This document shows positions 25,688-37,676 of a stretch of DNA of 64,000 bases, in pieces. This DNA comes from Ideonella sp. GTDB taxonomy: Bacteria > Pseudomonadota > Gammaproteobacteria > Burkholderiales > Burkholderiaceae_C. The notes under the pieces are model-generated. The model saw only the letters and a program-made list of their open reading frames with translations. It was not told the origin of the DNA and did no database searches. Each line of letters opens with the position of its first letter. The first letter of the stretch is position 1. The position numbers were made by a program, and so were the translations under genes. Location of the stretch: assembly GCA_015075545.1 (NCBI GenBank), contig JABTUC010000003.1, positions 414,283-478,282 on the forward strand, read 5' to 3'.

Positions 25688-27483
25688 CACGTTCGATTCG
25701 ATCCTGCTCGGCCACGGCGCTCGTGCTCGCGGCGCTCGCCGCGGCCGCCGCGCACGCCGCGACGATCACCGTCACCGACGCCGCGGGCAAGCCGCTGGCC
25801 ACCGCCAAGGTGCGCGAGGTCGCCGCCGCGCCGCGAGCGCGCGACACCAGCGATGGCGGTTACCCGGCGCCGGGCAAGCCGCGGGTGGTCGACGTCGACA
25901 TCACGCGCTTCACCGATGCCGCCGGCCGCGCCGCGTTCGCCGACCGTGGCGCCGCGGTGAACTACCTCGTGCGCAAGCCCGGCTATCGCGACGCGACGGT
26001 CGCCGCCGCCGCGGGCCAGGCCGAGGTGCGCGCCGTGCTCGAGGCGCAGACCGACGCGGCGAAGCTCGCCGAGGCCAAGCCGGCCAACGTCTGGCTCGGT
26101 GCACTCGACCTCGACGATCCGCAGCGCAAGCTGCAGTTCATGCTGCAGTGCACGTTCTGCCACCAGCAGGGCAATGCGTTCCTGCACCACGAGCGCCCGG
26201 TGGCCGAGTGGAACGACGCGATCCACCGCATGGTGCGCTACGGCTCGCGGCTGTCGAGCGCCGACCAGCGCGCGCTGCCCGAGCTGCTGCACGCCGGCTG
26301 GCGCCGGCTGCGCGAGCACCCCGAGCTGCTTGCCACGCCGGCGCCGTGGAGCCCGGCGCTGGCCGGCACCACGATCACCGAGTGGCCGATCGGCGACGCG
26401 ATGTCGCAGACGCACGACCAGTTGCTGGGCCGCGACGGTCGGGTCTACGTGGCCGACAACATCCAGGACCGCATCTACCGCATCGACCCGCAGACCAACG
26501 AGGTCACGGTGTTCAAGATCCCGCACCGCGACGGCGAGCCCAACGGCGGCCTGCTGGCGGCGCGGCTGCGCGATTTTCCGCGCCACGACAGCACCTCGAA
26601 CGCGCACTCGCTCGCGCAGTCGGCGCGCGACGGGCACATCTTCGTCACGCCGTCGGCGCAGCGGCGGCTGGTGGAGTTCGACCCCGCCAGCGGCGCCTTC
26701 ACGCTGCACGAGATGGACGGCGGCTTCTACCCGCACACCATCCGCATCGACGCCCAGGATCGCGTCTGGTTCACGCTCGCGCTGTCGAACCAGATCGCGA
26801 TGTTCGATCGCGCGAGCGGGCGCTTCACGCGCTACGACCTGCCCACGCGAAGCTGGCGCGAGTGGCTCACCGTCAAGCTGATCGGGCCGATCTTCGTGCT
26901 GATGGGCTGGGGCGTGCCGCTGGCCAATTGGCTGCCGGTCGACCGCCTGGCCACCGGCACGCCGCTGCCCTACGGCATCGACATCGCGCCCGACGGCAGC
27001 GTCTGGTTCGCGCGGCTGCACACCGCCGAGATCGGCCGCCTCGACCCGGCCACAGGGGCGATCACGATGATCGCCACGCCGTTCCTCGGCCCGCGCCGGC
27101 TGCGCAGCGACGCCGACGGCAACCTGTGGATCTGCGCGTTCCCCGAGTCGGCGATCGCGCGCTACGACCCCAAGGCCGGCACCTTCACACGATTCGACCT
27201 GCCGGTGGTGCCCAAGGGCAGCGAGACGCCGTACTCGCTCAACATCGACAAGCGGCGCGGCATCGTGTGGGTGACCGGCAACCAGTCCGACTCGCTGTAC
27301 GCGCTCGACATCCGGACCCAGGCCTGGCGCACGGTGCCGCTGCCGCGGCGCGTGGCGTTCACGCGCGACATCGAGATCGACGAGCGCGACGGCACGCTCT
27401 ACACCTCGACCTCGAGCTTTCCGAGCTGGCACGTCGAAGACGCTCAGCCGACGATGATCCGGGTGCAGACGGCCGCGCCCTGA
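25684..27483 (+). CDS. Exported mono-heme c-type / virginiamycin B lyase-like beta-propeller protein
   Basis: The 599-residue protein has a signal peptide (about 1-25, ending AAHA), then a carboxypeptidase-regulatory-like domain (TITVTDAAGKPLATAKVREV to about 120). A single heme-binding motif CTFCH lies at residues 156-160, followed by an NHL/Vgb-type propeller (GRDGRVYVADNIQDRIYRID, DGSVWFARLHTAEIGRLDP, ADGNLWICAFPESAIARYDP). A hydrophobic stretch at about 399-419 (LIGPIFVLMGWGVPLANWL) interrupts the propeller. It overlaps the SDR stop and is followed after 3 bp by an MFS gene. A periplasmic sensor or dehydrogenase role is inference. Confidence 0.8.
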   Translation: MTRSIRSCSATALVLAALAAAAAHAATITVTDAAGKPLATAKVREVAAAPRARDTSDGGYPAPGKPRVVDVDITRFTDAAGRAAFADRGAAVNYLVRKPGYRDATVAAAAGQAEVRAVLEAQTDAAKLAEAKPANVWLGALDLDDPQRKLQFMLQCTFCHQQGNAFLHHERPVAEWNDAIHRMVRYGSRLSSADQRALPELLHAGWRRLREHPELLATPAPWSPALAGTTITEWPIGDAMSQTHDQLLGRDGRVYVADNIQDRIYRIDPQTNEVTVFKIPHRDGEPNGGLLAARLRDFPRHDSTSNAHSLAQSARDGHIFVTPSAQRRLVEFDPASGAFTLHEMDGGFYPHTIRIDAQDRVWFTLALSNQIAMFDRASGRFTRYDLPTRSWREWLTVKLIGPIFVLMGWGVPLANWLPVDRLATGTPLPYGIDIAPDGSVWFARLHTAEIGRLDPATGAITMIATPFLGPRRLRSDADGNLWICAFPESAIARYDPKAGTFTRFDLPVVPKGSETPYSLNIDKRRGIVWVTGNQSDSLYALDIRTQAWRTVPLPRRVAFTRDIEIDERDGTLYTSTSSFPSWHVEDAQPTMIRVQTAAP

Positions 27484-27486
27484 GCC

Positions 27487-28689
27487 ATGCCGCTCGTGCT
27501 GCGGCCACCGCTGCGCTGGTTCTACCTCTCGTGCCTGGCCGCGTTCACCGGCGGCCACGTCGTCAACTACACGCTGATCCTCTACGCGCAGGAGGCGATC
27601 GGCTCCGACCTGCTCTCGGGCATCGGCTTCGGCCTCGCATTCGGGCCGCCGGTCGTGCTCGGCTGGGTCGCCGGCGTCTGGTGCGACCGCCTTGCGCCGG
27701 GGCGGCTGATCCACGCCGCGCAGGCGGTGTTCGTGCTCGCCGCCGCGCTGCTGTGGGCGGCCGACGCGACCACCGCCGCCGCCGCGCCGCGCGTGGCGGC
27801 GCTGGTGGCCGGCGCGGCGCTGACCGGCGTCGGCTGGTCGTTCGTGTCGCCGGCGCGCATGGCCACGCTCGGCCAGATCGCGAGCGCCGACGAGATCAAG
27901 CCCGCGTCGGTGATCTTCAACCTGCTGGTGATGGTCGGCTTCGGCCTCGGGCCGCTGGTGCTCGCGCTGGCGCGCAGCCGGCTCGGCTGGCCCGGCGTGT
28001 TCGCCGCCGCGATCGCGTTGTTCGCGCTCGCGTGGCTGGCGCTGCTGCCGGTGCGCACGCGCCCCAGCGCACGTGTGCACGAGCCGGTGGCTGTCGAGAT
28101 CCGGCAGGGCGTGGCGGCGGTGCGCGCCGACGCGCTGCTCGCGCAACTGATGGTCGCGGCGATGGTCGGTTACCTCGCGATGGGGCCGCTGACGGTGCTG
28201 CTGCCCAAGCTCGCGGCCACCCGGCTCGCGCTGAGCGAGGTGCAGCGCGGCAGCTTCCTCGGCGCGCTCGCGCTGGCGCTGATCGCCGGCGGCCTCGTCG
28301 CGCTGGCACTCGCGCCGCGCGCGCACCACGGGCGCACCATCCTCGCCGGCACCGCGCTCGCCGGCGTGTGGCTGGCGGCGCTCGGTCTCGTGCACTCGGC
28401 GTCGTGGGCGCTGCTGCTGCTGGCCGGCGTCGGCGTCGCCGGCGGCCTGGCGCTGTCGCTGATCGTCGCCGGCATCCAGGCGCGCTCGCCCGCGGCGCTG
28501 CGCGGCCGCGTCGTCAGCATGTACACGGTGATCAGCCAGGTCGTTCCGGCCGCCTCGGGCGTGGTGGCCGGAGCGCTGGTGCAGGGCTTCGGCGTCGGCG
28601 CCGCGCTCGTCGCGTGCGGCGCGACGCTGGCACTCGCGATGCTCGTCAATGCGCGCTGGATGGGCGCGCTGCGCGCCCACCAGGGGTAG
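27487..28689 (+). CDS. MFS transporter
   Basis: The 400-residue protein has about twelve hydrophobic spans. Examples are FYLSCLAAFTGGHVVNYTLI at the N-terminus, ALVAGAALTGVGWSF, VIFNLLVMVGFGLGPLVLAL, and SWALLLLAGVGVAGGLALSL near the C-terminus. The layout is that of enterobactin-exporter-like (MFS_3) permeases. It begins 3 bp after the propeller gene stop, so it is translated from the same mRNA. It converges on haoB with a 25-bp gap that holds a short GC-rich hairpin (GCGCGG-CCG-CCGCGC near 28,700). Substrate unknown. Confidence 0.85.
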   Translation: MPLVLRPPLRWFYLSCLAAFTGGHVVNYTLILYAQEAIGSDLLSGIGFGLAFGPPVVLGWVAGVWCDRLAPGRLIHAAQAVFVLAAALLWAADATTAAAAPRVAALVAGAALTGVGWSFVSPARMATLGQIASADEIKPASVIFNLLVMVGFGLGPLVLALARSRLGWPGVFAAAIALFALAWLALLPVRTRPSARVHEPVAVEIRQGVAAVRADALLAQLMVAAMVGYLAMGPLTVLLPKLAATRLALSEVQRGSFLGALALALIAGGLVALALAPRAHHGRTILAGTALAGVWLAALGLVHSASWALLLLAGVGVAGGLALSLIVAGIQARSPAALRGRVVSMYTVISQVVPAASGVVAGALVQGFGVGAALVACGATLALAMLVNARWMGALRAHQG

Positions 28690-28714
28690 GCCGGAGCTCG
28701 CGCGGCCGCCGCGC

Positions 28715-29686
28715 TCAACTCGGTGGATCGGCCGGCGACAGCTCGAACACCGAGTAGCCGCCCGATCGATACACCAGCGTCAGCCCGCGCACGTCGTCCT
28801 GCCGGTTGCCGATCAACGGCAGCAGCCGCGCGACGAGCGTCGCAGCGCTGGCATCGTCCTTCAGCGCGATCGCGCGCACGCGGTTGTCGGGCAGCTTCAT
28901 CACGCTGTAGGCGGTCTGCCCGCCCTCGCGCAGCCAGCCCTTCACGCCGCGCACCGAGCGGTGCACGTCGCCGGAATCGGCGAAGTCCTGGAACGACACG
29001 CCGAGCCGCTGCGCGAACAACTCGCCCAGCAGCACCAGATCGCGCAGGTGCAGCACGACGATGCCGCCGGCCGGCGCCAGCGAGCGCAGCAGCCTGACGC
29101 CCTCGTCCTCGCTCGACACCAGCGCCCGCGCGAAGGTGTCGAACGCGCTGAGCTGCCCTGCGTCGGCAGCACCCCAGAAGTCGCGCTCGATGCCGGCCAC
29201 CTGCCGTTGCTGGCTGCGCCAGCGTTGCGGCACGAACAGCGGCTGCGCCAGATGCTGGTCGAAGCGCATCTCGCCGGCGCCCCAGTGGCGCAACTGACGC
29301 GACGTGTCCCACCACGCCAGCACCGCCATGCCGGGCTTGCGGTGGCGCGCCAGCACCGTCGCGACCGCCTGCGTCTCGGCGCCGGGAACGCTCAAGTACA
29401 GCAGCGGATCGTCGACCTGCGCGCGCCACTGCAGCAGCACCGGGCCGTGTTCGCCGCGCACGATGTCGGCCTCGGCAAGCAGCGCGTCGTCGCCGCCGAG
29501 CACGCGCACGGTCTGCGTGCCGTCGGCGGCGTTCGCCTGCGGCTCGTAGCGGTACGGCGGCGGCGCCGCCAGCGTGCGCCACGCCAGCGCCGCGGCGGCG
29601 GCCAGCAGCACCGCACCGAGCGCCCACAGCAGCGCGCGCAGCGCGCCCGGGCGCATCGGCGCGAGCGCCTGCGCGGCCTCAGGCAT
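28715..29686 (-). CDS. haoB: Hydroxylamine oxidation protein HaoB
   Basis: A protein of about 323 residues, encoded directly after haoA, as in ammonia oxidizers and methanotrophs. It has one N-terminal membrane anchor (ALLWALGAVLLAAAAALAW) and a periplasmic domain with GMAVLAWWDTSRQLRHWG, RDFWGAADAGQLSAFDTFA and WLREGGQTAYSVMKL. These resemble the HaoB family, whose exact role in HAO function is unknown. The ATG at 29686 overlaps the haoA stop (ATGCCTGA), so I prefer it to the upstream ATG at 29707. The end converges with the MFS gene. Confidence 0.75.
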   Translation of the reverse strand: MPEAAQALAPMRPGALRALLWALGAVLLAAAAALAWRTLAAPPPYRYEPQANAADGTQTVRVLGGDDALLAEADIVRGEHGPVLLQWRAQVDDPLLYLSVPGAETQAVATVLARHRKPGMAVLAWWDTSRQLRHWGAGEMRFDQHLAQPLFVPQRWRSQQRQVAGIERDFWGAADAGQLSAFDTFARALVSSEDEGVRLLRSLAPAGGIVVLHLRDLVLLGELFAQRLGVSFQDFADSGDVHRSVRGVKGWLREGGQTAYSVMKLPDNRVRAIALKDDASAATLVARLLPLIGNRQDDVRGLTLVYRSGGYSVFELSPADPPS

Positions 29687-31424
29687 CGTCGCCCGCGCTG
29701 CCCGCACGGCGGCGCCCGCTGCGCAGCCCGCCGAACACGAGCCCGACGCCGAGCAGCGCCAGCGCGCCCGAGGCGAGCAGCGGCTGCTCGTCGAGCACGC
29801 TCAGGCCGAGCGTCGCCTGCTGCGCCCCGGCGCCGCCGATCCACGAAGTGCGCCGCTTGGGGGTGCCCTCGAGCTTGCGCACCCGCTGTTCGAGCGCCGC
29901 CTTCTCGCGCAAGCTGGTGTCGTACTCGTTGATGATGGTCTGGTCCTTGATCAGGTCGGACCAGCCGTGCGAGTACGTCCAGCCGCCCGGGTTCACGTGC
30001 TGCAGGCCCTTCATGTAGCGCGCGATGTGCTGCTCCCACATCTCGGCGAAGGTGCGGTCGACCACCGTCGGGTTGTTGCCATTGCTGAAGAACAGCGAGT
30101 TGAACGCGCCGGGCTCGTCCTTCTCGGGCTCGGGCGGCGCGGGGCGGTTGGTCTTCTGCCCGACCAGCAGCTTGTCGTCGTAGAGCTTCTGCACCACCTT
30201 GCGTGTGCTCTCGACGAGCTTCACGCCCTCCTTGATGCCCGAGTCGGACATGTTCAGGTAGGTCGTCGCGAAGCGCGGGCTGTGGCACTGCGAGCAGGTC
30301 TGCACCCAGGCCTCCTTGCGGTCCTTGAACCACGGATGGTCGAGGTTGTCGACGATGCTGGTGAACGGCAGGAAGCCCCAGCGCACCTTGCGCGTCACGT
30401 TGTGCGTGTACTGGCCCTTGAACTCCATGTGGCAGGTCTGGCAGGTCGGCGCGCTCTGATTGCCCTTGGTGAATGCGTCGGCGAGACGGGCGTTCCAGTC
30501 CCAGGTCGATCCCCTCGTCTGATAGCGGGTGCCGTGCTTGGAGAGCATGTACTGCTCGAACTCGTTGTGGTCGACACCGTTGTGGCAGGTGGAGCACGCC
30601 TCGGGCTTGCGCGCCTCGACGGTCGAGAAATCGTGCCGGGTGTGGCAGCCGTCGCACTTGGCCTGGTTGTAGTGGCACATCGTGCAACTGGCGGCCACCT
30701 CGCGCTGCTGCAACGCGGCCCAGGTCGTGTTCTCGACGTTGGCGGTGTAGTCCACCGCGTGCGACGGATGCCCGGGATCCCACTGCTTCTGCGGCCAGAC
30801 CTGCGTATCGCGCTCCGACTCGGCCTCGGCGAACTGCTTGATGTGGCAGGTACCGCAGTCGGCGCGGCTCGGCAGGTGCAGGTCGCGCGCGTGGTTGCCG
30901 CCGGCCTTGCCGACGCCCATGTGGCAGTCGATGCAGCCCACCTCCTTCAGCGGCGCACCTGCGGCCAGCACGCCCTGCGCGCGCAAGCCCTGTTCGACCT
31001 CTGAGAGGATCGATTTCTTGTATGCGCGCACGTCGCCGTCGGGCAGCTTGCGCAGCGCGTCGAGGTTGGCGTGCACGCTCTGCTGCCACGCTTGCACCCA
31101 GCCGTGCGTGGCCGCGGTGTGGCAGGCCACGCACTGCTCGCGCGTGACCTCGATGTTCAGATCGGGCGGCTTGTAGAACAGCGACGGCGCCAGGTACTGG
31201 TCGATCGGCGCCGGCTCCCACCACTTGGCGAGTTTGCCCTTGTTGAGGTTGGCCTTGTAGCGCCTCACCAAGGCGTCGTAGAGCTGCTTGGGCGACGCCG
31301 AGCGTTCGAGATTCAGCGCCTTGAGCTGCTCGTCGGGCACGGTGTCCCAGATCTGCGCGTGCGCCCACTGGGCCGCCAGCGCCAGCACGATGAACAGCCA
31401 ACCGCGTGCAACGATCCTGTGCAT
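29679..31424 (-). CDS. haoA: Octaheme hydroxylamine oxidoreductase HaoA
   Basis: The 581-residue product has a Sec signal (1-23, AQWAHA) and eight CxxCH heme motifs at C98, C164, C190, C247, C257, C277, C328 and C377. This is the full HAO set. HVNPGGWTYSHGW (about 477-489) corresponds to the C-terminal region that carries the crosslinking tyrosine of P460 in Nitrosomonas HAO, with Y484 the candidate (inference). A C-terminal hydrophobic span at about 549-567 suggests membrane attachment. The ATG at 31424 has GGAGGAG at six bases. HAO oxidises hydroxylamine in the periplasm. The electron acceptor cytochromes c554/cM552 are not encoded nearby. Confidence 0.92.
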   Translation of the reverse strand: MHRIVARGWLFIVLALAAQWAHAQIWDTVPDEQLKALNLERSASPKQLYDALVRRYKANLNKGKLAKWWEPAPIDQYLAPSLFYKPPDLNIEVTREQCVACHTAATHGWVQAWQQSVHANLDALRKLPDGDVRAYKKSILSEVEQGLRAQGVLAAGAPLKEVGCIDCHMGVGKAGGNHARDLHLPSRADCGTCHIKQFAEAESERDTQVWPQKQWDPGHPSHAVDYTANVENTTWAALQQREVAASCTMCHYNQAKCDGCHTRHDFSTVEARKPEACSTCHNGVDHNEFEQYMLSKHGTRYQTRGSTWDWNARLADAFTKGNQSAPTCQTCHMEFKGQYTHNVTRKVRWGFLPFTSIVDNLDHPWFKDRKEAWVQTCSQCHSPRFATTYLNMSDSGIKEGVKLVESTRKVVQKLYDDKLLVGQKTNRPAPPEPEKDEPGAFNSLFFSNGNNPTVVDRTFAEMWEQHIARYMKGLQHVNPGGWTYSHGWSDLIKDQTIINEYDTSLREKAALEQRVRKLEGTPKRRTSWIGGAGAQQATLGLSVLDEQPLLASGALALLGVGLVFGGLRSGRRRAGSAGDDA

Positions 31425-31435
31425 CTGCGTCTCCT

Positions 31436-31475
31436 CCGGCATGCCGGCCCTGCACGGAGCCGGTCGCCGGCATGC
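31436..31475. promoter_or_regulatory. Palindromic region immediately upstream of haoA
   Basis: A perfect 12-bp palindrome CCGGCATGCCGG at 31436-31447 sits just upstream of the haoA ribosome-binding site. A partial copy (GCCGGCATGC) lies at 31466-31475. The spacing and position suit an operator, but the words are GC-rich and could arise by chance. No clear -35/-10 boxes were recognised. Confidence 0.25.
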
Positions 31476-31570
31476 TTGACCGCGCGCTGCGCGCGAGCAA
31501 GCACCATGTGCGGTCTCGACGATGGAGCCATGCGGCTACCGGCCGTGCCTTGCGGGAAAGCCCCGATGCC

Positions 31571-33049
31571 TCAGGCGCGGCCCGACTGCAGCGCCGCGGC
31601 CAGCCGGCCGATGGCGCTGGCGATCTCGTGCTCGTCGAGCGCGGCGTAGCCCAGCAGCAGCGCGCGCGCCCAGCGCTCGGGCGGCCCGTGCAGCCACGCA
31701 TTGCCGTTGCGCAGGCTGTAGACGCCCACGCCAGCGGCGCGCGCCAGCGGCTCGATCGCCGCCGCGTCGGGCAGTGCGGCAGGCGCCTGCCACACCAGAT
31801 GCATGCCGGCATGCATGCCGCGCGGCGGCGCGCCGCCGAAGTGGCGCGCCAGCGCGGACGCCAGCGCATCGCGCCGCGCGGCGTAGTGCTTGCGCAGCCG
31901 CCGCAGGTGGTGCGCGAACTCGCCGCTGTCGATGAACGCCGCCAGCGACGCCTGCAGCAGCCACGGCGAGCCGTTGGTCAGCAGACCCTTGATCGTGACG
32001 GCGGCGTCGCGCAGCGCGCGCGGGGCGATCAGGTAGCCCAGGCGCATGCCCGCGGCCAGGCTCTTGGAGAAGGTACCGAGATAGATCACGCTGTCGTCGC
32101 GGTCCTCGGCCTTCAGCGCCGGCATCGGCGCGCTGTCGAAGTAGAAGTCGCTGTCGTAATCGTCCTCGACGAGAAAGCCGCCATGCTCGCGCGCCCAGCG
32201 CAGCCAGGCGCGGCGCCGTTGCGCCGACAGCGCGGCGCCGCTCGGGTACTGGTGCGCCGGCGTCAGGTACACCGCGGAGCAGCCGGACGGCAGATCGGCG
32301 GGCTGCGCGCCTTCGTCGTCGACCTCGAGCGGCACGAGGCGCGCGCCGTGGCTGGCGAACACGTTGGCCGCGCCGGCGTAGCCGGGGCACTCCATGCCGA
32401 CCGCGTCGCCCGGCACGAGCAGCAGACGTGCGACGATGTTGATACCTTCCTGGATGCCGTTGGTGACGATGACGTCGTCGGCGCTGCAGACGATGCCGCG
32501 CGCCGCGCCGACATGCCCGGCCACCGCGGCGCGCAGCTTGCGCAGGCCCGCGGGCTCGCCGTAACTGCCGTCGCCGTGCTGCATCTGCGCCAGCGAAGTC
32601 TCGACCAGCTTGCGCCAGGCGTGCACCGGGAACAGGCGCGGATCGGGCCGGCCGACCCAGAAGTCGAGCTCCACTTCGTCGGCGTACGCCGAGCGCAGCG
32701 CGTGCATCCGACCGCGAAAGCGCAGCGCCGCGCGCGGCGCCACTGGCGGTGCCGCGACGGCCTCGTCGCGTGCCGGTGGCGGCGCGATCGCGATGCCGGG
32801 CACGCCCCGCGCCGTGACGAAGGCGCCGAGCGGTGGCCGCATCTCGATGAAGCCCTCGGCGACCAGCCGCTCGTAGGTGAGCACCACCGTGTTGCGCGAG
32901 ACGCCGAGGTCGATCGCCAGTTGGCGGGTGGCCGGCATGCGCATGCCCGGCCGCAGCAGGCCCTCGGCGAGCTGCGCGACGAACTGATCGAACAACTGCT
33001 CCTGCAAGCTGCGCCCGCCCGAGGAGGCCAGATGGATCGGCAACTGCAT
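31571..33049 (-). CDS. MocR-family transcriptional regulator (GntR-HTH/aminotransferase fusion)
   Basis: From ATG 33049 the product is 492 residues. A GntR winged helix (about 10-75, ATRQLAIDLGVSRNTVVLTY) is followed by a fold-I aminotransferase-like domain (GDGSYGEPAGLRKLRAAVAG, DDVIVTNGIQEGINIVA, VEDDYDSDFYFD). The PLP-lysine region is TFSKSLAAGMRLGYL. MocR proteins sense PLP/amino acids and usually control a neighbouring divergent gene, here the Rieske/FAD oxidoreductase 198 bp away. The stop lies 147 bp upstream of the haoA start on the same strand, so read-through into haoA is possible. Confidence 0.88.
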   Translation of the reverse strand: MQLPIHLASSGGRSLQEQLFDQFVAQLAEGLLRPGMRMPATRQLAIDLGVSRNTVVLTYERLVAEGFIEMRPPLGAFVTARGVPGIAIAPPPARDEAVAAPPVAPRAALRFRGRMHALRSAYADEVELDFWVGRPDPRLFPVHAWRKLVETSLAQMQHGDGSYGEPAGLRKLRAAVAGHVGAARGIVCSADDVIVTNGIQEGINIVARLLLVPGDAVGMECPGYAGAANVFASHGARLVPLEVDDEGAQPADLPSGCSAVYLTPAHQYPSGAALSAQRRRAWLRWAREHGGFLVEDDYDSDFYFDSAPMPALKAEDRDDSVIYLGTFSKSLAAGMRLGYLIAPRALRDAAVTIKGLLTNGSPWLLQASLAAFIDSGEFAHHLRRLRKHYAARRDALASALARHFGGAPPRGMHAGMHLVWQAPAALPDAAAIEPLARAAGVGVYSLRNGNAWLHGPPERWARALLLGYAALDEHEIASAIGRLAAALQSGRA

Positions 33050-33246
33050 ACATCCGCCTGTGTACGACCCCGCAGGTGGCGTGCGTCGGCGGAGCCGGCC
33101 GCAGCATAGGTCGCCCTCGTGCGGCGCGACCATCGGGAAGACCCCCGCCCCGCCGCCGCCATCGCCGGACACGCGCAATCACCCTGCTGCACGCAGGCGG
33201 ACGCGCGTCGGTGCACAGTCGGCCAAGCATCAAGGAGGCCTTCGAC

Positions 33247-34785
33247 ATGAGCGATCCACAAGACACCAAGCTCGCCGGCCCCGACCTTGCGCAAGGCGTG
33301 GCGCTGGCCGATCTCGCCGACGGCGCGATGCTGCTCGGCCACAAGGACGGCGAAGCGGCGCTGCTGGCGCGCCGCGGCGACGAGCTGTTCGCGATCGGCG
33401 CCACCTGCACGCACTACGGCGGCCCGCTCGCCGAAGGGCTGCTGGTCGGCGACACGGTGCGCTGCCCGTGGCACCACGCCTGCTTCAGCCTGCGCAGCGG
33501 CGAAGCGCTGCGCGCCCCGGCGCTGAACGCAGCGTCGTGCTGGCACGTCGAGCGGCGCGACGGCAAGGCCTTCGTCGGCGCGAAGATCGAGCCGCCCAAG
33601 CGTGCCGCCGCGCCGGCACGCGCGCCGCAGTCGGTGGTGATCGTCGGCGGCGGCGCCGCTGGCCAGGCGGCCGCCGAGACGCTGCGCCGCGAAGGCTTCG
33701 CCGGCCGCCTGACGATGTTGAGCGCCGACGCATCGGCGCCGGTCGACCGGCCGAACCTGTCGAAGAACTACCTCGCCGGCACCGCGCCGGAAGACTGGAT
33801 TCCGCTGCGCCCGAGCGAGTTCTATCGCGACCAGGGCATCGAGCTGAAGCTCGGCGCGCGCGTCGAGGCGATCGAGCCGACGGCGCGACAGGTGGTGCTG
33901 ACCGACGGCAGCCGGCACGGCTGGGACGCGCTGCTGCTGGCCACCGGGGCCGAGCCGATCCGGCTCGACCTGCCCGGCGCCACGCTGCCGCACGTGCACC
34001 TGCTGCGCACGCTGGCCGACAGCCGCGCGCTGGTCGCCGCCGCGAAGCCGGGCGCGCGCGCGGTGGTCGTCGGCTCGAGCTTCATCGGTCTCGAAGTGGC
34101 GGCGTCGCTGCGCGCGCGCGACGTCGCGGTGCAGGTGGTCAGCCTCGATGCAGTGCCGATGATCCGCGTGCTCGGCGACGAGGTCGGCAGCTCGGTGCGC
34201 CGCCTGCACGAGCAGCACGGCGTCGTGTTCCACCTCGGCACCGCGCCGACGGCGATCGACGCGCGCGCCGTCACGCTGCGCGACGGCACGAAGCTCGAAG
34301 CCGACTTCGTGGTCATCGGCGTCGGCGTGCGGCCCGCGATCGCGCTGGCCCAGGCCGCCGGCCTGACGATCGACCATGGCGTCAGCGTCGACGAGTATCT
34401 GCAGACCAGCGCGCCGGGCATCTACGCCGCAGGCGACATCGCTCGCTGGCCCGACCGCGGCAGCGGCCAGCGCATCCGCGTCGAGCACTGGGTGGTCGCA
34501 CAGCGCCAGGGGCGCACCGCGGCGCGCAACATGCTCGGCGCGCGCGAGCGCTTCGACGCGGTGCCGTTCTTCTGGACCGAGCAGTACGACTTCGTGCTCG
34601 CCTACGTCGGCCACGCCGAGCGCTTCGACCGCGTCCTGATCGACGGCGACCTCGCCGCGCGCGACTGCACCGTCAGCTACTTCGCCGGCGATCGCCGGCT
34701 GGCGGTGGCAACGGTCGGCCGCGACCTGCAATCGCTGCGCACCGAGCTCGACTTCGAACGCGCGATCGCCAAGGCGGCTGCATGA
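33247..34785 (+). CDS. Rieske/FAD-dependent NAD(P)H oxidoreductase (AIFM3-like)
   Basis: The 512-residue protein fuses an N-terminal Rieske domain (CTH at 54-56 and CPWH at 73-76) with an FAD/NAD-dependent ferredoxin-reductase domain. That domain has VVIVGGGAAGQAAAETLRRE, DALLLATGAEP, VVVGSSFIGLEVAASL and ending signature GIYAAGDIARWPD. It resembles apoptosis-inducing-factor-like and rubredoxin/ferredoxin reductases. AAGGAGG lies eight bases before the ATG. The gene overlaps the next one by ATGA and is divergent from the MocR gene. The electron partner is not evident. Confidence 0.88.
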   Translation: MSDPQDTKLAGPDLAQGVALADLADGAMLLGHKDGEAALLARRGDELFAIGATCTHYGGPLAEGLLVGDTVRCPWHHACFSLRSGEALRAPALNAASCWHVERRDGKAFVGAKIEPPKRAAAPARAPQSVVIVGGGAAGQAAAETLRREGFAGRLTMLSADASAPVDRPNLSKNYLAGTAPEDWIPLRPSEFYRDQGIELKLGARVEAIEPTARQVVLTDGSRHGWDALLLATGAEPIRLDLPGATLPHVHLLRTLADSRALVAAAKPGARAVVVGSSFIGLEVAASLRARDVAVQVVSLDAVPMIRVLGDEVGSSVRRLHEQHGVVFHLGTAPTAIDARAVTLRDGTKLEADFVVIGVGVRPAIALAQAAGLTIDHGVSVDEYLQTSAPGIYAAGDIARWPDRGSGQRIRVEHWVVAQRQGRTAARNMLGARERFDAVPFFWTEQYDFVLAYVGHAERFDRVLIDGDLAARDCTVSYFAGDRRLAVATVGRDLQSLRTELDFERAIAKAAA

Positions 34786-35021
34786 ACGCGCCACGCGAGC
34801 CGCGCTTCGCGGTCGGCGACCACGTGCGCTGGAACTCCGAGGCCGGCTGGGTCAGCGGCACGATCATCAAGGTGCACACCCGCGACTTCGACTACAAGGG
34901 CCACACGCACCGCGCCAGCGAAGGCGCACCGCAGTACGAGATCAAGAGCGACAAGACCGACCACATCGCCGCGCACCGCGGCGCGGTACTGCAGCGGGTC
35001 GCACCCGGCCGCGGCGGGTGA
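34782..35021 (+). CDS. DUF2945 (HVA1-like) small protein
   Basis: The 79-residue product begins MNAPREPRFAVGDHVRWNSE and contains GWVSGTIIKVHTRDFDYKGH and YEIKSDKTDHIAAHRGAVLQ, the full pattern of the DUF2945/hypervirulence-associated TUDOR-like family. It is translationally coupled to the Rieske/FAD gene (ATGA). Role unknown. Its stop abuts that of the convergent downstream gene. Confidence 0.85.
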   Translation: MNAPREPRFAVGDHVRWNSEAGWVSGTIIKVHTRDFDYKGHTHRASEGAPQYEIKSDKTDHIAAHRGAVLQRVAPGRGG

Positions 35022-35510
35022 TCAGGGTTTCCTGAGCATGCGCCGCATGCGGACCTCGGCCACCTTCTCGATCACCAGGCGCTCGGCGCCCGAGGCCGCG
35101 GCCAGCTCGGCGTCGGCACGCAGCACGCACGCGCCGTGCACCCGGCTGCGGCGCTCGTCGTCCCACGTCTTCTGACGCTCGCGCGCCTCGTTCAGGCGCG
35201 CCTTGGCAGTGCGCTCGTCGTGCATGCCGTCGAAGTACACGCTCCCGACCAGCGCCGCGGCACGCACCATCTCGGCCCTCAGCGCCGGCTCGCGCTCCTT
35301 GTCGCCGGCCTTGACCTGCCGCGCCAGCTCGCCGGCGGTGACCTCCATCACCGCGATGCAGTCGGCGGTGTCGTCGTCGGTGGCCTGCGGGGCCGCACGC
35401 GCTGACGGCCACGACAGTGCCGCCATCAGGCACAGCGCCAGCACGCCAGGGTAGCGCAGGCGCAACCCGCATCCCGGCACCCGGCCGGCAGACTGACGAT
35501 GGATGCGCAT
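35022..35510 (-). CDS. Hypothetical exported protein
   Basis: From ATG 35510 the 162-residue product has a signal peptide (LRYPGVLALCLMAALSWPSARA) and a mature helical domain with ADCIAVMEVTAGELARQVKA, VGSVYFDGMHDERTAKARLN and ACVLRADAELAAASGAERLV. Two cysteines (in ADC and GAC) could form a disulfide. I do not recognise a family. A longer frame opens at 35627, but the preceding segment is not protein-like. The stop is adjacent to the convergent DUF2945 stop. Confidence 0.6.
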   Translation of the reverse strand: MRIHRQSAGRVPGCGLRLRYPGVLALCLMAALSWPSARAAPQATDDDTADCIAVMEVTAGELARQVKAGDKEREPALRAEMVRAAALVGSVYFDGMHDERTAKARLNEARERQKTWDDERRSRVHGACVLRADAELAAASGAERLVIEKVAEVRMRRMLRKP

Positions 35511-35633
35511 GCAACCTGCAACGTCACAGTCGACAGGCACGACGACAGCGGCCCGCAGCGCAGCGCACCGAACATCACGCATTGCAACGGGCGCGCCCGT
35601 GGCGATGGTCGTGTGCGGCACCCTCATCGGGCC

Positions 35634-37676
<2,043 letters not shown>

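What the first reader, a model, noticed from the sequence alone, without database searches (positions are those of the whole stretch)
28715..31424. Complete haoA-haoB module in a heterotroph-like Burkholderiales setting
haoA encodes all eight CxxCH motifs, a signal peptide, a C-terminal membrane span and the HVNPGGWTYSHGW region expected to hold the P460 crosslinking tyrosine. haoB overlaps it by eight bases. HAO is the core enzyme of ammonia oxidisers and some methanotrophs, yet the window otherwise looks like an aromatic-degrading heterotroph. cycA/cycB (c554, cM552) are not adjacent. This may be an NH2OH- or NO-detoxifying or energy-yielding system using a different electron acceptor.
Basis: partly seen in the sequence, partly recalled or inferred. 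Interest (0 to 1): 0.78.

Follow-up and report, generated by a model that had tools for sequence, protein, structure and literature searches.

The report
Hydroxylamine-oxidising cassette with dedicated regulator
A bacterium in which no ammonia-oxidising gene was found carries a genuine nitrifier-type hydroxylamine-oxidising enzyme next to a vitamin-B6-binding regulator and a shared DNA switch, a set that recurs in other non-nitrifying bacteria and suggests that they sense and burn off toxic hydroxylamine.

Summary
In detail: haoA (29679-31424, minus) encodes 581 aa with eight CxxCH and Y484 at the N. europaea Y467 position; haoB overlaps it by eight bases. AmoA/PmoA (PF02461) was found neither in this 85%-complete genome nor in 28 named HAO genomes; c554 was not found here. 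HaoA lies in a 22-row clade without AMO hits, apart from the probable ammonia oxidisers. HAO outside ammonia oxidisers was already known. Relatives accompany hao in 33 of 35 AMO-free loci, in four arrangements, and fall in one clade (with four members away from hao). A two-box element, TGGNNCCA-N16-TGGNNCTT (window 31499-31530), precedes haoA in 22 of 34 distinct loci with the regulator and 0 of 7 without; other spacings give 0-2 rows. I propose an inducible haoAB cassette. Since hydroxylamine traps PLP as an oxime, the regulator may sense it directly: inferred, not shown. Against: electron acceptor unknown, the element also marks MocR genes away from hao, and Nitrosococcus oceani has a GntR-annotated gene beside hao.

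The parts
29679..31424 (-). haoA: octahaem P460-type hydroxylamine dehydrogenase, 581 aa
   Evidence: PF13447 458.8 bits
29973..29975 (-). codon of Tyr484, equivalent of N. europaea Tyr467 (P460 cross-link; that role is recalled)
29724..29780 (-). HaoA residues 549-567, the strongest hydrophobic 19-residue stretch: likely C-terminal membrane span
   Evidence: Kyte-Doolittle mean 2.13
28715..29686 (-). haoB, 323 aa, predicted N-terminal helix 13-40 that could anchor it
   Evidence: TIGR04392 191.3 bits against a cut-off of 200; model
31571..33049 (-). haoR (my name): MocR/PdxR-type regulator, GntR HTH plus aminotransferase fold, 492 aa, PLP lysine K329
31499..31530 (-). two-box operator-like element TGGCTCCA-N16-TGGTGCTT between haoR and haoA

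Best explanation
The locus is a regulated haoR-haoAB cassette. HaoA is an exported, probably membrane-anchored P460 hydroxylamine dehydrogenase of the oxidative type, haem-loaded by the cell's Ccm system (in many relatives by ccm genes in the same cassette). It oxidises hydroxylamine that the cell meets but does not make with an AMO, and passes the electrons by way of HaoB or a general c-type cytochrome rather than c554. HaoR, which keeps the PLP site, binds the TGGNNCCA-N16-TGGNNCTT element ahead of haoA and switches haoAB on when a nitrogen compound reacts with its PLP; hydroxylamine itself is the most likely one. Shown by sequence: the enzyme's identity, no AMO or c554 hit in the assembly, linkage, one regulator clade, the spaced element, the kept PLP residues. 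Inferred: DNA binding by HaoR, its ligand, the sign of regulation, the direction of the enzyme, its electron acceptor, and that the purpose is detoxification.
For: Enzyme. No AMO hit. No c554 hit. HaoR in 34 of 41 distinct informative HAO loci, 33 of 35 without AMO hits and 1 of 6 with, in four arrangements: 11 upstream tandem, 4 upstream divergent, 10 downstream same direction, 9 downstream convergent (AMO status). Clade of 34 hao-linked copies plus 1 of 12 paralogs, 100/100. HaoA and HaoR distances correlate, r 0.79, n 34, 0 of 2000 permutations as high. Element ahead of haoA at 16-bp spacing in 27 of 47 rows (25 of 45 distinct), 0-2 rows at every other spacing from 4 to 30; 22 of 34 HaoR loci, 0 of 7 HaoR-free loci; further sites ahead of haoR, cycA and ccmI. 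PLP lysine in 34 of 35 copies (one duplicate), EDDYD aspartate in 35; GabR's carboxylate arginines are Gly in 26 of 26 and Arg in 4 of 26 (roles from PMC6917764 passages). Precedents: GabR senses GABA as an external aldimine on PLP; DnfR of the hydroxylamine-linked dnf cluster is MocR-like (titles and passages).
Against: No expression, binding or activity data for this clade. Genome 85.44% complete. Four clade members are not next to hao (L153, L169, L170, L172), two of them with the element, and the element also lies at the MocR gene L149 of G561, outside the clade, so it is not hao-specific. 12 of 34 HaoR loci lack the 16-bp form. L121 has Arg for the PLP lysine. L127 and L128 have hao, no AMO hit and no HaoR. 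AMO-bearing G958 has HaoR, and N. oceani, an ammonia oxidiser, has a GntR-annotated gene before haoA. PdxR also lacks the carboxylate arginines as I read, so their loss does not name the ligand. Genome-wide the strict element matches 32 times in 40 genomes against 70 for the mirrored control.
Confidence: 0.55

Rival explanations
1. HaoR controls haoAB but senses something else, such as PLP status, an amine or another N-oxy compound; hydroxylamine acts indirectly or not at all.
For: HaoR scores above the NCBIfam PdxR cut-off (384.5 against 320). Clade members away from hao sit beside molybdopterin oxidoreductases, a NapC/NirT cytochrome or cupin and PNPOx-like genes.
Against: Linkage to hao in 34 of 41 loci; no pdx gene was recognised among the neighbours that I scanned, though not all neighbours were scanned.
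Confidence: 0.3
2. The cassette serves mainly energy gain: a heterotroph feeds on hydroxylamine leaked by neighbouring ammonia oxidisers.
For: Several host records carry bioreactor-type isolate names (titles only; habitats not checked). G067 and G383 keep c554- and cM552-like genes next to hao without an AMO hit.
Against: No c554 hit in G000 and no cytochrome gene in the window clade's cassettes.
Confidence: 0.25
3. HaoA works in reverse, reducing NO towards hydroxylamine or ammonia.
For: Suggested for Ca. Desulfobacillus denitrificans (PMC8402940 passages).
Against: HaoA keeps the tyrosine (50 of 50 HAO rows, 0 of 8 outgroup rows) that in known HAO forms P460 (recalled) and groups with oxidative HAO.
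Confidence: 0.08
4. haoR is a passenger of a mobile cassette and does not regulate hao.
For: The cassette sits in different surroundings, for example beside ribosomal and elongation-factor genes in L010, L016 and L017, which suggests transfer.
Against: Four arrangements kept in partnership, correlated distances and a spacing-fixed element ahead of haoA.
Confidence: 0.05
5. The organism is an ordinary ammonia oxidiser whose amo genes are in the missing part of the assembly.
For: Genome 85.44% complete; two of nine draft f16 genomes lack a PF02461 hit as well.
Against: All 22 rows of the HaoA clade lack AMO hits, no c554 hit, aromatic-catabolism genes around.
Confidence: 0.03

Closest known systems
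Nitrosomonas europaea HAO (PDB 4fas, 1fgj, 6m0p); its haoA-haoB-cycA-cycB gene order is recalled
   Same: Full-length homology, eight CxxCH, Tyr467, Asp267 and His268 positions; haoB next to haoA
   Different: Different HaoA clade, no cycA/cycB beside it, no AMO or c554 hit in the genome, a MocR regulator and element that the three sampled f16 loci with full flanks lack
Ca. Desulfobacillus denitrificans haoAB (PMC8402940, passages)
   Same: haoAB in a denitrifier that is not described there as an ammonia oxidiser, with aromatic catabolism
   Different: That HaoA is reported to cluster with ammonia oxidisers and lies beside c554 and another cytochrome c gene; no regulator is mentioned in the passages seen
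Nitrosococcus oceani Noc0891-Noc0895 (PMC3772326, section 10 part 1)
   Same: A GntR-annotated regulator gene before haoA-haoB; with hydroxylamine against starved cells HaoA 3.61-fold (qPCR 15.3) and HaoB 10.07-fold
   Different: An ammonia oxidiser with cycAB; ammonium has a similar effect; whether Noc0891 is MocR-type was not testable here
DnfR, MocR-like regulator of the dnf (Dirammox) cluster in Alcaligenes faecalis JQ135 (title and passages in PMC9136411, PMC9478400, PMC11160463, PMC11440038, PMC11192851)
   Same: MocR-type regulator wired to a hydroxylamine-handling cluster
   Different: Unrelated enzymes; ligand unidentified (PMC11440038); orthology to HaoR not tested, the paper itself is not held
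GabR (4n0b, 5t4j) and PdxR (7pq9, 7zla)
   Same: Architecture and PLP residues; GabR forms an external aldimine with its effector
   Different: 26-30% identity; GabR's carboxylate arginines are missing in HaoR
TauR operator CTGGACYTAA (PMC5320631, passages)
   Same: TGG-containing half-site in direct repeats
   Different: Target genes; HaoR element has a fixed 16-bp spacer

Membership tests
Hydroxylamine dehydrogenase (HAO, P460 type) | Eight CxxCH haem motifs and full-length homology to solved HAO | tested here: met
Hydroxylamine dehydrogenase (HAO, P460 type) | P460 cross-linking tyrosine position | tested here: met
   Y484, 50 of 50 HAO rows; the cross-link itself not testable
Hydroxylamine dehydrogenase (HAO, P460 type) | Phylogenetic place outside other octahaem cytochromes | tested here: met
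   100/100 split from 8 outgroup rows; anammox and epsilonproteobacterial references were not included
Hydroxylamine dehydrogenase (HAO, P460 type) | Oxidation of hydroxylamine | not testable with these tools
   needs the protein
HaoB (TIGR04392) | Score above the curated cut-off | tested here: inconclusive
   191.3 against 200 bits over the model positions 6-320 of 320
Ammonia-oxidising bacteria | Ammonia monooxygenase | tested here: not met
   PF02461 0 in G000; genome 85% complete
Ammonia-oxidising bacteria | c554 gene (cycA) | tested here: not met
   PF13435 0 in G000; cM552 not searched
MocR subfamily regulators | GntR-type HTH followed by an aminotransferase fold | tested here: met
   PF00392 and PF00155; GabR and PdxR best in sequence and fold
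MocR subfamily regulators | PLP-binding lysine and aspartate | tested here: met
   K329 and D296 in the window; 34 of 35 and 35 of 35 copies
PdxR (vitamin B6 regulator) | NCBIfam PdxR cut-off | tested here: met
   384.5 against 320 bits (535-aa ORF)
PdxR (vitamin B6 regulator) | Control of, or linkage to, PLP-synthesis genes | tested here: inconclusive
   no pdx gene among the neighbours scanned; targets not known
GabR | Arg207 and Arg430 that hold the GABA carboxylate | tested here: not met
   Gly in 26 of 26; Arg in 4 of 26; roles from PMC6917764 passages
DnfR | Sequence orthology | not tested
   paper not held, no sequence at hand

The most novel reading that the evidence does not exclude
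HaoR is a direct chemical sensor of hydroxylamine: free NH2OH displaces the active-site lysine and traps the bound PLP as an oxime, the same damage that makes hydroxylamine a poison of PLP enzymes (recalled chemistry), and that event switches on haoAB through the N16 two-box operator. It would be a hydroxylamine-sensing transcription factor, of which I found none in print, possibly sharing its principle with DnfR, and it would mark a widespread guild of non-nitrifying hydroxylamine oxidisers.
Probability: 0.38. Interest if true: 0.85.

Novelty: new variant of a known kind. Interest (0 to 1): 0.66.

Why it matters
How cells perceive hydroxylamine, a toxic nitrogen-cycle intermediate, is open as far as my searches show. 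A recurring PLP-binding regulator with a defined operator next to true HAO genes makes this testable with one protein and one DNA fragment. It also means that haoA in a genome or metagenome does not by itself show ammonia oxidation: hosts named without an AMO hit include Comamonas badia, Allopusillimonas ginsengisoli, a Castellaniella, two Mesorhizobium strains and Oceanibacterium hippocampi. Such bacteria could turn leaked hydroxylamine into NO and so affect NO and N2O budgets (inference).

Tried and rejected
AMO hidden elsewhere: rejected as far as the assembly allows. Membership in the other octahaem cytochromes: rejected. A hao-specific operator: rejected, because the clade members L169 and L172 away from hao have it, and so does the MocR gene L149 of G561, which lies outside the clade. 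The element as a genome-wide regulon marker: rejected, because the mirrored control matches 70 times against 32 in 40 genomes; G000 has two matches, hao and C8:134170. A strict rule that HaoR goes with absence of AMO: rejected (L132 of AMO-bearing G958; Noc0891 in print). HaoB by fold: no PDB match at E<=0.001, best 3vu0 at 0.015. RNA elements: Rfam, 0 matches in 26000-36000. An operator of the alphaproteobacterial group: a variant with a 7-8 bp spacer in L023, L024 and L028 was seen and not tested further.

Slips: one search used 17 N by miscount; I kept it as a spacing control (3 matches in 27 genomes, by their places none at hao) and ran 16 N. In some searches the propeller gene was given in the wrong frame; one search repeats it. 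L087 and L132 are one locus, L019 and L122 are one locus, G018 and G383 are one genome; counts called distinct leave out L087 and L122. L128 is counted as informative although its contig ends inside haoB.
Full report
1. The observation. The minus strand carries haoA (29679-31424) and haoB (28715-29686), overlapping by eight bases. HaoA has eight CxxCH, a hydrophobic N-terminus and a C-terminal hydrophobic span. Its best PDB matches are HAO structures at E around 1e-183, and by my count Y484 pairs with Y467. In an alignment of 58 rows the tyrosine and the D and H of the active-site pair are present in 50 of 50 HAO rows; in the 8 outgroup rows Y is 0 of 8, D 0 of 8 and H 8 of 8. That Y467 cross-links haem P460, and the roles of D267 and H268, are recalled.

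2. Where it sits. The genome G000 has 3.69 Mb in 13 contigs and is 85.44% complete. Genes nearby point to aromatic catabolism: PaaZ at 35634-37676 and a Rieske/FAD reductase at 33211-34785 whose best NCBIfam hits, below cut-off, are ring-dioxygenase reductases. PF02461 (AmoA/PmoA) finds nothing in G000 or in 28 genomes reached through named loci, 0 of 29; nothing rang in that call, but the same search rings in 10 of 22 HAO genomes, among them 7 of 9 of family f16, which I take for Nitrosomonadaceae from gene content, since names are not told. c554 (PF13435) finds nothing in G000; 13 of 38 genomes match, strongly (E<=1e-25) only the four f16 genomes tested, G067 and G383/G018, the last two handles being one genome. 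One CcmF gene lies in G000 at C13:74512, not near hao; 39 of 41 HAO genomes have one or more.

3. HaoA phylogeny. In a careful ML tree of 58 rows the 50 HAO rows split from 8 other octahaem cytochromes at 100/100. The window is in a clade of 22 rows, all without AMO hits (100/99), mostly Burkholderiales by record title: Ideonella, Comamonas, Rubrivivax, Alicycliphilus, Castellaniella, Allopusillimonas and MAGs named only to class or phylum. This joins a group with Mesorhizobium, Oceanibacterium, a Steroidobacteraceae MAG and one genome with an AMO/PMO hit, G958 (89/99). The f16 rows are in another clade. In a draw of 399 genomes of the order, 28 matched PF13447 and 12 had a true HAO (E<1e-100); in the window's family f1 it was 1 of 12. 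The further HAO genomes come from draws of the class (369) and phylum (398).

4. The regulator. I called genes with a codon model and clustered them by blastp in the window, L002-L029, L087 and L120-L136: 47 locus rows, 45 distinct. Leaving out L011, L012, L029 and L135, whose contigs end too soon, 41 distinct loci are informative. A MocR-type gene, which I call haoR, is in 34 of 41: 33 of 35 without AMO hits (misses L127 and L128; L128's contig ends inside haoB) and 1 of 6 with AMO hits (L132; misses L130, L131, L133, L134, L136). It stands upstream in tandem in 11, upstream divergent in 4, downstream in the same direction in 10 and downstream convergent in 9. In L010, L016 and L017 it is ten or eleven genes away, at the far end of the cassette. 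A CcmF-like gene is in 14 of 47 rows, with other ccm genes in many; L021, L023, L024 and L028 add a gene that in L021 is a 5-aminolevulinate synthase. This fits the needs of an eight-haem enzyme. The window's own cassette has no ccm gene.

5. One kind of MocR. In a careful tree of 46 rows all 34 hao-linked copies and 1 of 12 paralogs form one clade, 100/100. A quick tree with nine more paralogs and five distant ones left out puts 4 of 16 paralogs, L153, L169, L170 and L172, in it. In the draw of 399 genomes of the order (three candidates scored per genome) five hits reach 380 bits: the window, two in G383, one in G067, all hao-linked, and G054, which has no PF13447 match. HaoA and HaoR distances correlate, r 0.79, n 34, 0 of 2000 permutations as high. 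The AlphaFold model (pLDDT 85.9) matches GabR and PdxR best.

6. The PLP site. Among 35 aligned copies (L019 and L122 are one) the EDDYD motif is in 35 and the lysine in 34. In a set of 26, Y224, D296, Y298 and R336, by my alignment the equivalents of GabR Y205, D279, Y281 and R319, are invariant, and K329 (K312) is in 25. GabR's two arginines that hold the GABA carboxylate (PMC6917764, passages) are Gly in 26 of 26 and Arg in 4 of 26. So the copies keep the cofactor site and lack the amino-acid clamp; PdxR lacks it too as I read, so this alone does not name the ligand.

7. The operator. Aligned upstream regions showed two TGG boxes. The pattern TGG..[CT]C[AT]-Ng-TGG..C[TC][TA] occurs within 350 bp ahead of haoA in 27 of 47 rows at g=16 (25 of 45 distinct loci) and in 0 to 2 rows at each other g from 4 to 30. 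It is in 22 of 34 distinct HaoR loci, in the cut contigs L011, L012 and L029, and in 0 of 7 HaoR-free loci. A wider version, scanned over all 47 rows (784 kb), hit only outside called genes: ahead of haoA, haoR (L120, L123, L132), cycA (L120, L129) or ccmI (L022); in L009, where haoA is partly masked, the hit overlaps its called start. I read the boxes from these sequences, so their presence is partly circular; the fixed spacing, the HaoR-free loci and the cycA, haoR and ccmI sites are not. In whole genomes the strict form matches 32 times in 40 genomes, by their letters and places 21 of them at hao promoters and one at the haoR promoter of G958; the mirrored control matches 70 times, so counts mean little and places much. 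TGG boxes in direct repeats are usual for MocR regulators, and TauR's half-site is CTGGACYTAA (PMC5320631, passages).

8. Away from hao. In G054 (L178) the element lies between the regulator and a molybdopterin oxidoreductase; in G106 (L180) between the regulator and a NapC/NirT cytochrome at a contig end, and the same genome has an octahaem cytochrome on another short contig; in G510 the second copy (L153) stands beside a molybdopterin oxidoreductase and a cytochrome with two CxxCH, without the element. In G561 the element overlaps the start of the MocR gene L149, which is outside the clade. A common theme of N-oxy chemistry is possible but not shown.

9. What is known. hao in a denitrifier is in print (PMC8402940, passages), and PMC3772326 states that haoAB is not unique to ammonia oxidisers (passages). 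Its table lists a GntR-annotated gene, Noc0891, before haoA in N. oceani, with HaoA 3.61-fold (qPCR 15.3) and HaoB 10.07-fold up with NH2OH against starved cells, and a similar effect of ammonium (section 10, part 1). DnfR is known to me from its title in reference lists and passages; PMC11440038 speaks of identifying its ligand as future work. Five searches listed no paper whose title or abstract start ties a MocR regulator to hao or names a hydroxylamine-sensing transcription factor: 20 of 65, 4 of 4, 20 of 143, 1 of 1 and 10 of 40 papers were shown. The library lacks most subscription journals.

10. Verdict. A real HAO, in a host without a detectable AMO, as part of a recurring cassette with its own regulator and operator. 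The enzyme is a known kind; the regulatory wiring is the new part and makes hydroxylamine sensing directly testable. Detoxification is my first choice of purpose and energy gain the second; nothing here decides between them.

Noticed in passing
window 25723-27483 (+): 586-aa protein with a Vgb-lyase-type beta-propeller (PF24684, 87.2 bits) and one CTFCH haem motif, followed by an MFS transporter gene at 27487-28689.
   Followed up: partly
L019/L122 and L121 (genome G383 = G018): One genome carries two HAO types: one of the window's lineage and one f16-like with c554- and cM552-like genes, each with its own haoR, and no AMO hit; the second haoR has Arg for the PLP lysine.
   Followed up: partly
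L120 (genome G067): A complete haoA-haoB-cycA-cycB-haoR set in a genome rated 100% complete without an AMO hit, with the element before cycA and before haoR.
   Followed up: partly
L010, L016, L017: hao-ccm cassettes stand beside ribosomal-protein and elongation-factor genes (S12, S7, EF-G, EF-Tu by sequence look), an unusual place for an accessory module.
   Followed up: no
L180 and L053 (genome G106): A HaoR-clade gene with the element before a NapC/NirT cytochrome; an octahaem cytochrome lies on another short contig of the same genome and might belong with it.
   Followed up: partly
L168 (G561), 9416: The same element overlaps the start of a MocR gene outside the HaoR clade, divergent from an alpha/beta-hydrolase gene.
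   Followed up: partly
L127, L128 (family f147): hao without haoR, without the element and without an AMO hit in genomes of 1.8-2.0 Mb, with identical HaoA rows.
   Followed up: no
window 28715-29686 (-): HaoB is predicted with high confidence (pLDDT 92.9) but has no PDB fold match at E<=0.001, so its fold may be undescribed.
   Followed up: partly
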